Assembly: GCA_949292445.1 (NCBI GenBank)
Contig: CASEZU010000076.1
Coordinates: 1-12,130 of the forward strand
Length of the DNA stretch: 12,130 bases
From: an uncultured Spirochaetales bacterium
GTDB taxonomy: Bacteria; Spirochaetota; Spirochaetia; Sphaerochaetales; Sphaerochaetaceae
Reading direction: 5' to 3'
The translations under genes were made by a program, and so were the position numbers. The notes under the pieces are model-generated. The model made no database searches, was not told where the DNA came from, and saw nothing but the letters and a program-made list of their open reading frames with translations. Below, piece after piece: positions 4,407 through 6,845 of this stretch; positions within the stretch are counted from its first letter, which is position 1; every line of letters starts with the position of its first letter.

Positions 4407-5702
4407 CTATTCTGCGAGAATAATGAATCTGTCAGCAGTATATCCTGTTTCCTGAACATCATTCAGGTTACGACCATTATAAGTATTGCCGGTGAATACA
4501 ACATTGATATTATCCTGCTTCTCAGAGCTTGTTCCGATATCTCCGAACTGAACAATGACAGGCTTATAATCCTCATCTTCATCCGGTGCAATATTATTGA
4601 AATCATTTCCGCTTATGTTGAAATCCGAATTAGAGAATCCAGAACGGCCGATCGCCTTTCCTGAAATATCATCAAAGAAACAGCCGCTGATTACATATTC
4701 TCCATTTACATTCTCATCCGTATTTCCCCTTAGCTCTACAGCATCATGCCCAGAAGATATGAAAGAACAGTTGCGTATTTCACAATCAACAATTGTCTCA
4801 AGCCTTATGTGCTGGAAATAATCCGAGAAAGTACAGTTAATGAAATCGATATTGTTGAATACAGTTCCATTCTTATGCATATAGAATCCATAGCAGGAAG
4901 CATTATTGGTATCTCTCATGGCTGTATTTCCGATAAAATGACAATTCTCAACTGTCACATTGCTGACAGGAGAGTCTGAATGCTGCAGCTCAAACCAGAT
5001 ATTGGATTCTTTTATTGTGAGATTTCTGAAATAAAGGCCATCGATATCATAGTACAGGAAGTAGGCTCCAGGAGCTCTTTCCGATATCGGATCTGTTTCC
5101 ACTGTATTGCTATCCAGAATGATGCCACCGTTCAGAATCGCTCCATCACATCCGATTATTTCCAGATTGCGGATTTCTCTTGTGTAATATGGATAGTAGG
5201 TGTCTTTTAATTCTGACAGATATATCTCCATAGGAACATTTCCACCTGGATACTTGTTCTGGTCTATGTCACCAGCCACACGGACCGAAGACTGCCATCG
5301 GGAATTTCTGATGCTCAGCTGATCGTACTGCCCATCAAGAAGAATAACAGTACTGTCAGATCCAATGCGATCAAGGACAGCCTGAGCAAGATCAGGCCCA
5401 ACTGCAATTACAGCTCTTGCCCCATCAGAATCAGCATTGTTGTCAATTTCCGCCAGCTGCGCCTCATTTGCAACCGCCACAACACCTGTGCGATATGCAA
5501 TTTCTATCACATCGCCACACTCACATTCATATTCCTTGTATAACGTCGATCCATTAAGAGAATAGCCGGAAGGATCAACACTATACTCATGCGTATGAGC
5601 AGTACCACCTCCGCCAGGAAATACGACAGGCGGAATTGCATAGTTGCGGCAGGAGGCCATCAACAACAGTACAAGAAATGAAAATGCCAAAATCTTTTTC
5701 AT
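4407..5702 (-). CDS. Exported beta-helix lipoprotein, putative surface protein
   Basis: 431 residues, not recognised as a named family. Seen: a lipoprotein signal MKKILAFSFLVLLLMAS with C18 as the lipidation site, a Gly-rich linker (30-33), then H36/H38 and C60/C62 (HTH...CEC), spaced like a small metal-binding fold. Next comes a globular stretch to about 150. From about 175 to 405 there are repeating turns of the form 'IxNLxIxGCxG', 'VSNVTVENCHFIGN', 'FNNIDFINCTFSD', 'VDCEIRNCSFISS', 'YVISGCFFDD' and 'FNISGNDFNN', with Asn/Cys ladders. This is a right-handed parallel beta-helix as in pectate-lyase-like and adhesin proteins. No catalytic set is evident. GAGGTGAT lies just before the ATG. The gene stands alone, with its own terminator and a promoter containing nine consecutive G. 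Location in the outer membrane or periplasm is inferred. Base composition is AT-richer than flanking genes, suggesting accessory origin. Confidence 0.8.
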   Translation of the reverse strand: MKKILAFSFLVLLLMASCRNYAIPPVVFPGGGGTAHTHEYSVDPSGYSLNGSTLYKEYECECGDVIEIAYRTGVVAVANEAQLAEIDNNADSDGARAVIAVGPDLAQAVLDRIGSDSTVILLDGQYDQLSIRNSRWQSSVRVAGDIDQNKYPGGNVPMEIYLSELKDTYYPYYTREIRNLEIIGCDGAILNGGIILDSNTVETDPISERAPGAYFLYYDIDGLYFRNLTIKESNIWFELQHSDSPVSNVTVENCHFIGNTAMRDTNNASCYGFYMHKNGTVFNNIDFINCTFSDYFQHIRLETIVDCEIRNCSFISSGHDAVELRGNTDENVNGEYVISGCFFDDISGKAIGRSGFSNSDFNISGNDFNNIAPDEDEDYKPVIVQFGDIGTSSEKQDNINVVFTGNTYNGRNLNDVQETGYTADRFIILAE

Positions 5703-5728
5703 GGATCACCTCAGTATCTTTCACTTCA

Positions 5729-5756
5729 AGACTACCCCCCCCCTGTATACTGTCAA
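5729..5756 (-). promoter_or_regulatory. Promoter with a nine-G spacer tract (candidate phase-variable promoter)
   Basis: Minus strand: perfect -35 TTGACA (5756-5751), a 16-base spacer made of GTATACA plus nine G (5743-5735), then TAGTCT (5734-5729). That -10 matches consensus at the three most conserved positions, T1, A2 and T6. Predicted start near 5722 leaves about 20 bases of leader containing GAGGTGAT. One extra G would make the spacer 17, one fewer 15. An alternative reading uses TTGAGA and TATACA with a 19-base spacer, which would put the G run at the transcript start. Confidence 0.6.
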
Positions 5757-6300: not shown

Positions 6301-6591
6301 TTGCTGCTTGAAATAATAAGGGACAGCCTGAAGGAACTGGAAGCTGTGGAAAACGGCAGCGATCAAGTCACCGATCAAGTTGAGGACCCTGTTGAAAGAC
6401 TTGTATCAGTGCTGGGAAACGGAACTCTTACTGCAGCGGAGCTTATGAAGCGCCTGCAGCTTTCCCATCGCCCGACATTCATGAAGAACTATCTCAGCCC
6501 AGCTCTCGAATCTGGACTCATAGAACGTACCATTCCGGATAAGCCTAAGAGCAGCAAACAGAAATACAGGAAAGCAAGGCACAGCAGCTGA
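6301..6591 (+). pseudogene. C-terminal remnant of a Fic-family or AlbA-type ATP-binding protein
   Basis: 96 residues readable from a TTG. The frame has no ATG, no ribosome binding site and is closed by a stop at 6277-6279. Seen: VTDQVEDPVERLVSVLG (a 'DQV' repeat leading into a helix), then LTAAELMKRLQLSHRPTFMKNYLSPALESGLIERTIPDKP with SKQKYR. This is the winged-helix tail found at the C-terminus of many Fic AMPylases and of AlbA-type 'ATP-binding' proteins. In the full proteins it follows a Fic or AAA/AlbA core of several hundred residues, which is missing here. I therefore call it a truncated leftover. Choosing between the two parent families needs a search. Upstream sequence shows no convincing remainder of the core in any frame, so loss was probably by deletion rather than a single frameshift. 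Confidence 0.65.
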
Positions 6592-6772
6592 TGAGATAGC
6601 CGCAAAGATAACATTCTACAGTGGCTATCAATGAGAAACGGTGCCTGATGAAAAACAAAGGCAACCTACTCCTGAGCCATTGCTCAGCCAGCAGATTGCC
6701 GCGTTTCATGATGGTCTGGAGACCCACATCCACCTTCAGCCTTTGCTTTCAGTGGCCCAGATTACATCTATT
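6592..6772. other. Spacer between the Fic-like stump and the tRNA 3' end
   Basis: No credible gene. One hairpin CTGAGC-CATT-GCTCAG (6672-6687) lacks a T run. There is no visible copy of the tRNA 3' end to mark an attachment site. Confidence 0.5.
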
Positions 6773-6845
6773 TAGCAGGGGCAGGACTCGAACCTGCGAC
6801 CTCCGGGTTATGAGCCCGACGAGCTGCCAACTGCTCTACCCTACG
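6773..6845 (-). tRNA. Initiator tRNA-fMet (anticodon CAT)
   Basis: 73 bases fold as a full cloverleaf on the minus strand. D stem GAGC/GCTC, anticodon stem TCGGG/CCCGG around loop CTCATAA, T arm GCAGG-TTCGAGT-CCTGC. Initiator hallmarks are present: three consecutive G-C pairs at the base of the anticodon stem (GGG/CCC), an A11-T24 pair, and an unpaired 1-72 position. Here that mismatch is C1 opposite T72 rather than the common C1-A72. Position 3-70 is a T-G wobble. The discriminator is A and CCA is not encoded. It has its own promoter just upstream and no tRNA neighbours. Its 3' end faces the accessory region at 4349-6772. Confidence 0.92.

What the first reader, a model, noticed from the sequence alone, without database searches (positions are those of the whole stretch)
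5729..5756. Nine-G tract sits exactly between -35 and -10 of a surface lipoprotein gene: candidate phase-variable promoter
A consensus TTGACA is separated from a TAGTCT -10 by 16 bases, nine of which are one G run. Poly-G runs slip during replication, so one-base changes would move the spacer between 15, 16, 17 and 18 and switch or tune transcription. The target encodes an exported beta-helix lipoprotein, the kind of product cells vary. Poly-G promoter variation is known for Treponema pallidum tpr genes; this gene is a different family, so the system looks undescribed. The whole layout, including leader and ribosome binding site, fits.
Basis: partly seen in the sequence, partly recalled or inferred. 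Interest (0 to 1): 0.85.

Follow-up and report, generated by a model that had tools for sequence, protein, structure and literature searches.

The report
Slippery poly-G switch in lipoprotein promoter
A run of nine Gs sits in the middle of the promoter of a surface-type lipoprotein gene of an uncultured spirochete, and related genomes carry many such G-run promoters in front of lipoprotein genes, so this looks like one switch in a set that lets these bacteria turn coat proteins on and off at random.

Summary
In detail: on the minus strand TTGACA (5756-5751), 7 nt, G9 (5743-5735), TAGTCT (5734-5729), then a 431-aa lipoprotein starting at 5702; spacer 16 bp. It is not chance. The layout occurs 267 times in 47 of 139 genomes of the nearest relative's family; the reversed pattern gives 1 hit, a C-tract version 2. 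Of 149 G>=8 tracts tabulated, 76 are spacer promoters, and all 73 with a readable gene drive lipoproteins (and by eye). Near-identical promoter copies in one genome differ in G count (G9/G10, G8/G11, G9/G8). Relatives of this same lipoprotein carry the tract inside the coding sequence instead. Best reading: a slippage-driven phase-variable promoter, one unit of a lipoprotein phasome. The kind is known (meningococcal porA, Treponema pallidum tp0126; passages), so "undescribed" can hold only for this lineage, scale and cassette form. Length variation within a population and its effect on transcription could not be tested here.

The parts
5751..5756 (-). -35 element TTGACA (exact consensus)
5735..5743 (-). 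poly-G tract, nine G, inside the -35/-10 spacer: the proposed slippage switch
   Evidence: same layout in 47 of 139 family genomes
5735..5750 (-). 16-bp spacer (GTATACA + G9)
   Evidence: tRNA-Met promoters of this window and five relatives have 17-bp spacers (alignment by eye; for the window)
5729..5734 (-). -10 element TAGTCT
   Evidence: TAGTCT in 7 of 76 class members
5713..5728 (-). untranslated leader
   Evidence: transcription start not mapped
5703..5712 (-). ribosome binding site GAGGTGATCC next to the start codon
   Evidence: by eye
4407..5702 (-). 431-aa lipoprotein, probably a right-handed beta-helix
   Evidence: 0 Pfam families; model mean pLDDT 81.8; weak PDB matches, mostly beta-helix proteins
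5649..5702 (-). signal peptide with lipobox MKKILAFSFLVLLLMASC (lipidated Cys18 by prediction)
   Evidence: read by eye

Best explanation
The G9 tract is a contingency switch in a sigma-70-type promoter. Replication slippage adds or removes G, which changes the -35/-10 distance in 1-bp steps and so raises, lowers or stops transcription of the lipoprotein gene in single cells. Shown: the architecture, its recurrence, its tie to lipoprotein genes, and different tract lengths in near-identical copies among relatives. Inferred: slippage within a population, the effect on transcription, surface exposure, and that the window's own tract behaves like its relatives'. If this clade prefers 17 bp, as its tRNA-Met promoters suggest, the assembled 16-bp state is a weak or off state. 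The switch is one of a set: by a loose test 99 of 149 tracts in relatives are lipoprotein spacer promoters or lie just before or inside a lipoprotein start.
For:: 267 hits in 47 of 139 genomes, up to 14 per genome; reversed pattern 1 hit; C-tract version 2 hits; 76 of 149 tracts are spacer promoters; 70 pass a regular-expression lipoprotein test, 3 more (L150, L184, L225) are lipoproteins by eye, 3 run off contigs, so 73 of 73 readable. A crude test finds only 22 lipoprotein-like ORFs in 640 kb. G/C-run counts fall to 1-2 at length 7 and rise again at 8-9 (G033, 400 kb: 14, 1, 1, 3, 1 runs of 6, 7, 8, 9, 10); 4 of 4 same-genome promoter pairs with at most one mismatch in 46 flanking bases differ in G count (G8/G11, G11/G9, G10/G9, G9/G10); 16 of 26 pairs with at most 8 mismatches differ; of six cassette pairs at least 97% identical, five differ in G count; a matching promoter region of two sister species, flanks 93.7% identical, G10 versus G8; relatives of the window's protein carry G7-9 inside the coding start (L001, L033, L034, L035, L044) or in a promoter spacer (L041). 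after three exclusions, plus L001: 11 of 12 intragenic lipoprotein tracts are out of frame in the assembly; the other four family members (L033-L035, L044) are in frame, so 11 of 16 in all; tract length is not correlated with the rest of the spacer (Spearman -0.16, p 0.16).
Against: No read-level, RNA or reporter data. Tract lengths are peaked: 47 of 76 spacer tracts are G9. The commonest spacer is 19 bp (35 of 76), so the length-activity relation may be unusual. Against a first-order Markov expectation the number of runs of 8 or more is not raised in G033 (5 seen, about 6 expected) and only somewhat in G045 (6 seen, about 3 expected); what stands out is the deficit at 6-7 and the second rise. 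A conserved A-C-C/T just before the tract could mean an extra factor. 73 of 149 tracts are not of the spacer class. In the sister-species G10/G8 pair the -10 also differs (CATGCT/TATGCT) and the proteins are only 58.6% identical; another matching pair shows no tract change. Seven of 13 family loci read show no G run of six or more on the coding strand.
Confidence: 0.86

Rival explanations
1. The G tract is a fixed structural or recognition element of a special promoter class (for a regulator, an alternative sigma factor or a DNA shape), and its slippage is incidental.
For: Lengths cluster at G9 (47 of 76); spacers of 18-19 bp are commonest, long for an ordinary promoter; a conserved ACC/ACT precedes the tract; -10 is TAG in 59% of 71 distinct members. 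In T. pallidum a CRP homolog also binds tpr promoters that carry poly-G (passage).
Against: Near-identical copies differ by 1-3 G; members of the same lipoprotein family use intragenic tracts, where a promoter element makes no sense; TTGACA and TAnnnT at both edges fit sigma-70.
Confidence: 0.1
2. The tract is inert and merely copied along, because the 5' ends of lipoprotein genes are duplicated and homogenised by recombination.
For: About 120-bp promoter-to-lipobox cassettes are 96-100% identical in front of diverged or undetectably related mature parts.
Against: The window and other members of the N7-N9 classes do not share these cassettes and still have the layout; intragenic tracts in other members of the window's gene family.
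Confidence: 0.03
3. The tract acts by frameshift inside a longer reading frame of the lipoprotein.
For: That is how L001, L033, L034, L035 and L044 look.
Against: In the window the frame of the ATG has stops between tract and ATG, including TGA two codons before ATG, so no tract length can fuse the frames (sequence).
Confidence: 0.005
4. Chance juxtaposition or assembly artefact.
For: One G9 run in 12 kb is only mildly unusual, and long G runs are not in excess of a first-order Markov model in G033.
Against: 267 hits against 1 and 2 in two controls over the same 139 genomes; lipoprotein targets in 73 of 73 readable cases.
Confidence: 0.005

Closest known systems
Treponema pallidum tp0126 (OmpW homolog) poly-G promoter
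   Same: Poly-G between -35 and -10 of a spirochete gene for an envelope protein; 17 nt optimal (passages of PMC7864442; the original paper is not held).
   Different: One outer-membrane protein gene; here a set of lipoprotein genes with spacers most often 18-19 bp, in other spirochetes.
Neisseria meningitidis porA poly-G promoter
   Same: Poly-G between -10 and -35 with 17-nt optimum (passage of PMC7864442).
   Different: Other phylum, porin, one gene.
T. pallidum tprE/G/J and tprL poly-G promoters
   Same: Poly-G in the promoter region; tprL tracts vary from 7 to 11 G in vivo, mostly 9 (passage).
   Different: Other gene family; [quoted passage not shown]
Intragenic poly-G contingency loci, such as meningococcal hmbR and hpuA (abstract start of PMC3786947)
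   Same: Homopolymer slippage; relatives of the window's gene seem to use this mode.
   Different: The window's tract is outside the reading frame.

Membership tests
Poly-G spacer phase-variable promoter (porA / tp0126 type) | G homopolymer located between -35 and -10 | tested here: met
Poly-G spacer phase-variable promoter (porA / tp0126 type) | Spacer close to 17 bp, so that single-G changes move it across the known optimum | tested here: met
   16 bp at G9; but 18-19 bp is commoner in the class (52 of 76), and the optimum in this clade was not measured
Poly-G spacer phase-variable promoter (porA / tp0126 type) | Tract length differs between otherwise matching copies | tested here: met
   for relatives, not for the window's own locus
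Poly-G spacer phase-variable promoter (porA / tp0126 type) | Tract length varies within one population | not testable with these tools
   no reads held
Poly-G spacer phase-variable promoter (porA / tp0126 type) | Transcription depends on tract length | not testable with these tools
   needs reporter or RNA data
Poly-G spacer phase-variable promoter (porA / tp0126 type) | Controls an envelope or surface protein | tested here: inconclusive
   signal peptide and lipobox; surface exposure unknown
Tpr family of Treponema pallidum | Target protein is a Tpr homolog | tested here: not met
   0 Pfam families at E<=0.001; predicted beta-helix rather than barrel; no direct comparison with a Tpr sequence was made
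Intragenic poly-G frameshift switch | Tract within the reading frame | tested here: not met
   stops between tract and ATG in the frame of the ATG
Right-handed beta-helix lipoprotein | Beta-helix fold | tested here: inconclusive
   AlphaFold2 mean pLDDT 81.8, many short strands; of the 50 PDB rows listed most are beta-helix proteins by name as I know them, but TM-scores are 0.11-0.40 and 1 of 231 matches has E<=0.001
Right-handed beta-helix lipoprotein | Lipobox after a signal peptide | tested here: met
   MKKILAFSFLVLLLMASC (by eye)

The most novel reading that the evidence does not exclude
A two-layer, genome-wide surface variation system in a group of uncultured spirochetes. About 5-14 lipoprotein genes per genome in the window's close kin are each under their own poly-G spacer switch, others under an intragenic poly-G switch, and a single lipoprotein family can move between the two modes. 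In a large subset a nearly identical 120-bp cassette (promoter, G tract, leader, signal peptide, lipobox) is grafted onto diverged or unrelated mature parts, so recombination swaps coat proteins under a ready-made switch while slippage turns each on or off.
Probability: 0.5. Interest if true: 0.78.

Novelty: new variant of a known kind. Interest (0 to 1): 0.64.

Why it matters
As far as I know, poly-G spacer promoters have been treated as a feature of a few genes in a few pathogens. Here the layout is a recurrent promoter class in a spirochete family (47 of 139 genomes) and is found in 81 of 392 genomes drawn across the phylum (reversed control 2 hits), aimed at lipoproteins in the genomes read in detail. 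It gives uncultured spirochetes a readable phase-variation repertoire that can be scored in existing metagenome reads, and natural series of near-identical promoters that differ in G count, useful for asking how spacer length and poly-G shape set promoter strength.

Tried and rejected
Chance and artefact: rejected by the reversed and C-tract controls. Frameshift mode at the window: rejected by stop codons. Known family for the target: no Pfam match; five proteins at E<=0.001 in a 5.8-billion search, one of them the window's own cluster. A selected constant total spacer: not supported, N and G uncorrelated, permutation 0.19. Orthologs by downstream protein across the tabulated tracts: only 12 pairs at 55% identity or more, one of them L001 with the window; 8 of the 12 differ in G count, but their flanks differ too, so they say little. 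Most length comparisons therefore rest on paralogous copies and one sister-species pair.

Literature: ten searches. None of the titles or abstract starts listed describes poly-G spacer promoters in spirochetes other than T. pallidum; one search listed 20 of 38 papers and five of six. I saw passages of one paper only (PMC7864442). The library holds open-licence papers, so this is weak evidence of absence.

Limits: the organism of the window is not held as a genome, so its own phasome is inferred from relatives. The 282-aa protein at 959-1807 (FNR-like by eye) is 91-94% identical in the nine best-scoring genomes. The display was cut; counts come from its stored table used. Five genomes were listed with 97 tracts; 96 entered the table, one G047 tract apparently dropped by the script's rule against identical 30-base flanks. 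G045 and G033 were read in part only. Lipoproteins were called by a regular expression and by eye, not by a trained predictor. Of 15 family loci, L045 and L046 were not read, and L032 is L001.

Full report
Observation. On the minus strand the window reads TTGACA, GTATACA, nine G, TAGTCT, a 26-nt stretch ending in GAGGTGATCC, then ATG of a 431-aa protein with signal peptide and lipobox MASC. Spacer 16 bp. It is the only run of six or more G in the window. The run alone is only mildly unusual; the run plus both promoter hexamers is not expected by base composition (about 3.5e-5 for a given run).

Target. The protein has no Pfam match. A search of 5.8 billion proteins gave five hits at E<=0.001, one of them the cluster of the window itself. 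AlphaFold2 gives a model rich in short strands (mean pLDDT 81.8). The 50 Foldseek rows listed are mostly proteins that I know as right-handed beta-helix lyases, glucanases and phage tailspikes, at weak scores (TM 0.11-0.40; 1 of 231 matches at E<=0.001). An exported beta-helix lipoprotein is therefore likely; surface exposure is not shown.

Relatives of the gene. One locus was found in the GTDB contig collection (L001, uncultured Spirochaetales); its genome (G001) opened a set of unnamed relatives. Of 119 relatives, 12 genomes have a match to the family. Of 13 loci read in context besides the window, six carry a run of 7 or more G near the gene start: L041 has TTGACG, 9 nt, G8, TAGAGT before a lipoprotein, the layout of the window; L001, L033, L034, L035 and L044 have the run inside the coding sequence, before or within the signal peptide. 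L033-L035 and L044 are in frame, L001 is not. The other seven (L036-L040, L042, L043) have no run of six or more G on the coding strand; several are partial matches. P0004 shows an in-frame GGG stretch shortly before its probable start, as expected of a G run about 30 nt upstream (inferred from protein only).

Family-wide class. The pattern TTGACN-N(7-13)-G7-TAnnnT gives 267 hits in 47 of 139 family genomes, up to 14 in one (its rows summed by hand). Read backwards it gives 1 hit; with C7 in place of G7, 2 hits in 2 of 139 genomes. Across the phylum 81 of 392 sampled genomes match, with 2 hits for the reversed pattern (this sample includes members of the same family).

Position of the window. 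Its 282-aa FNR-like protein is 91-94% identical to that of the nine best-scoring genomes; these nine have 5 to 14 hits of the pattern each.

Reading the tracts. From six genomes whose G>=8 tracts were fetched (G001, G007, G008, G016, G029, G047: 124 of 125 tracts listed), parts of G045 (17) and G033 (7) and the window, 149 tracts were tabulated. Seventy-six are spacer promoters (-35 at least 5 of 6, TAnnnT directly after the run). Seventy pass a regular-expression test for a lipoprotein start downstream, three more are lipoproteins by eye (L150, L184, L225), and three end at contig edges (L002, L015, L128): 73 of 73 readable. A crude search found 22 lipoprotein-like ORFs in 640 kb, so such genes are a small minority overall. 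Pfam searches of 20 of the 69 downstream proteins of at least 150 aa gave a match for six: Glug in two, Beta_helix or NosD in two, a borderline Big_3, and one low-complexity match far below its cut-off; 14 had none. They are thus not one conserved enzyme family.

The other 73 tracts are mixed. By the script's loose test 9 of them have a lipoprotein start downstream and 14 more a lipobox frame. One search, with a stricter set of rules, lists 18 with a lipobox frame downstream; 14 of these have an upstream start with a ribosome binding site. I set aside three: L024 and L127, where an ATG follows the tract, and L200, not a clear lipoprotein. Of the remaining 11, one is in frame and 10 are not. 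With L001 (by eye) that is 11 of 12 out of frame; with the four in-frame family members L033-L035 and L044, which lie outside that set, 11 of 16. The rest of the 73 include tracts in or near other genes with no clear role.

Length behaviour. In 400 kb of G033 there are 163, 14, 1, 1, 3, 1 runs of 5, 6, 7, 8, 9, 10 G or C; in 240 kb of G045 82, 10, 2, 2, 4, 0. A geometric decline does not give the second rise. Against a first-order Markov model, however, runs of 8 or more are not in excess in G033 (5 seen, about 6 expected) and are about twofold in G045 (6 against about 3); the clear departure is the deficit at 5-7. In the 76 spacer promoters the G counts are 8 (16), 9 (47), 10 (12) and 11 (1). 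Tract length does not compensate the rest of the spacer (Spearman -0.16, p 0.16; permutation 0.19). Among 26 promoter pairs with at most 8 mismatches in 46 flanking bases, 16 differ in G count; of the four with at most one mismatch all differ: G8/G11 and G11/G9 (G001), G10/G9 (G045), G9/G10 (G033). Of six cassette pairs at least 97% identical over about 120 bp, five differ: G9/G8 twice in G048, G10/G9 in G028, G9/G10 in G033, and G10/G9 between G033 and G019; one pair between G033 and G019 is G9/G9. Between the sister species G019 and G033 four matching loci were found in what I fetched: one G10 versus G8 with 22 identical bases before the tract (but -10 CATGCT against TATGCT, and proteins only 58.6% identical); one with G9 in both but spacer 18 versus 17 and proteins 99.4% identical; one intragenic G7 versus G8 with different bases before the tract and proteins 95.3% identical; one unchanged. 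These are species-level assemblies; variation inside a population was not seen.

Cassettes. In G048 five lipoproteins share an 88-99% identical stretch from TTGACA to the lipobox codon, while their mature parts have no match or 25-42% identity, some significant and some not; the G033/G019 pair L159/L233 has a 100% identical cassette and no significant mature match (18 loci chosen by me). Recombination below a common 5' end is the simple reading; it is an inference. The window does not share these cassettes.

Direction of the switch. The tRNA-Met promoter in the window and five relatives reads TTGACA-17-TAnnnT in all six (alignment by eye; for the window). If 17 bp is best here as for tp0126 and porA (passages of PMC7864442), the window's 16-bp state is weak, and most class members (18-19 bp, 52 of 76) would also be off the optimum, in line with the out-of-frame majority of intragenic tracts. 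This is a prediction; a different optimum caused by the shape of a G tract cannot be excluded.

Known and new. Poly-G spacer promoters are known from porA and tp0126; homopolymer tracts as a general switch from a survey (PMC2831843, abstract start only). Ten open-library searches listed no account of such a set in other spirochetes (details under Tried and rejected). I rate it a new variant of a known kind: same mechanism, but a lipoprotein-directed class across a family, with two interchangeable tract positions and shared 5' cassettes.

Noticed in passing
window 6655-6775 (-), next to tRNA-Met 6773-6845 (-): A 200-266-bp block with a tRNA-Met gene is 87-94% identical in 10 of 11 relatives searched; the 120 nt directly 3' of the tRNA (86% mean column identity in six sequences) fold into two helices ending in a terminator-like hairpin and T run, with 4 of 35 pairs showing changes on both sides. 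No Rfam match except the tRNA. Possibly an undescribed small RNA co-transcribed with the tRNA.
   Followed up: partly
L052, L113, L116, L206 (G001, G029, G007, G047): A non-lipoprotein of 244-245 aa (MAYQLSPLNVTYDP...) has a G8-G10 tract 67-84 nt upstream of its start in four genomes although the sequence next to the tract differs; a conserved tract position without the spacer layout.
   Followed up: no
L271-L284 (G506, G484): Two other genomes of the phylum sample have spacer promoters with longer runs (G12-G17), including TTGACTTTTGA-Gn-TATTAT copies with n from 12 to 15 in one genome, and often GGAAGA or AGAAGA after the -10.
   Followed up: partly
window 6301-6591 (+): A 96-aa ORF matching only the Fic-like C-terminal domain family, perhaps a remnant, divergent from the lipoprotein gene.
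   Followed up: no
contig ends in G048, G028, G005, G019, G001: Several contigs end within or next to these promoter cassettes, as expected if near-identical 5' ends break short-read assemblies; the true number per genome may be higher.
   Followed up: no
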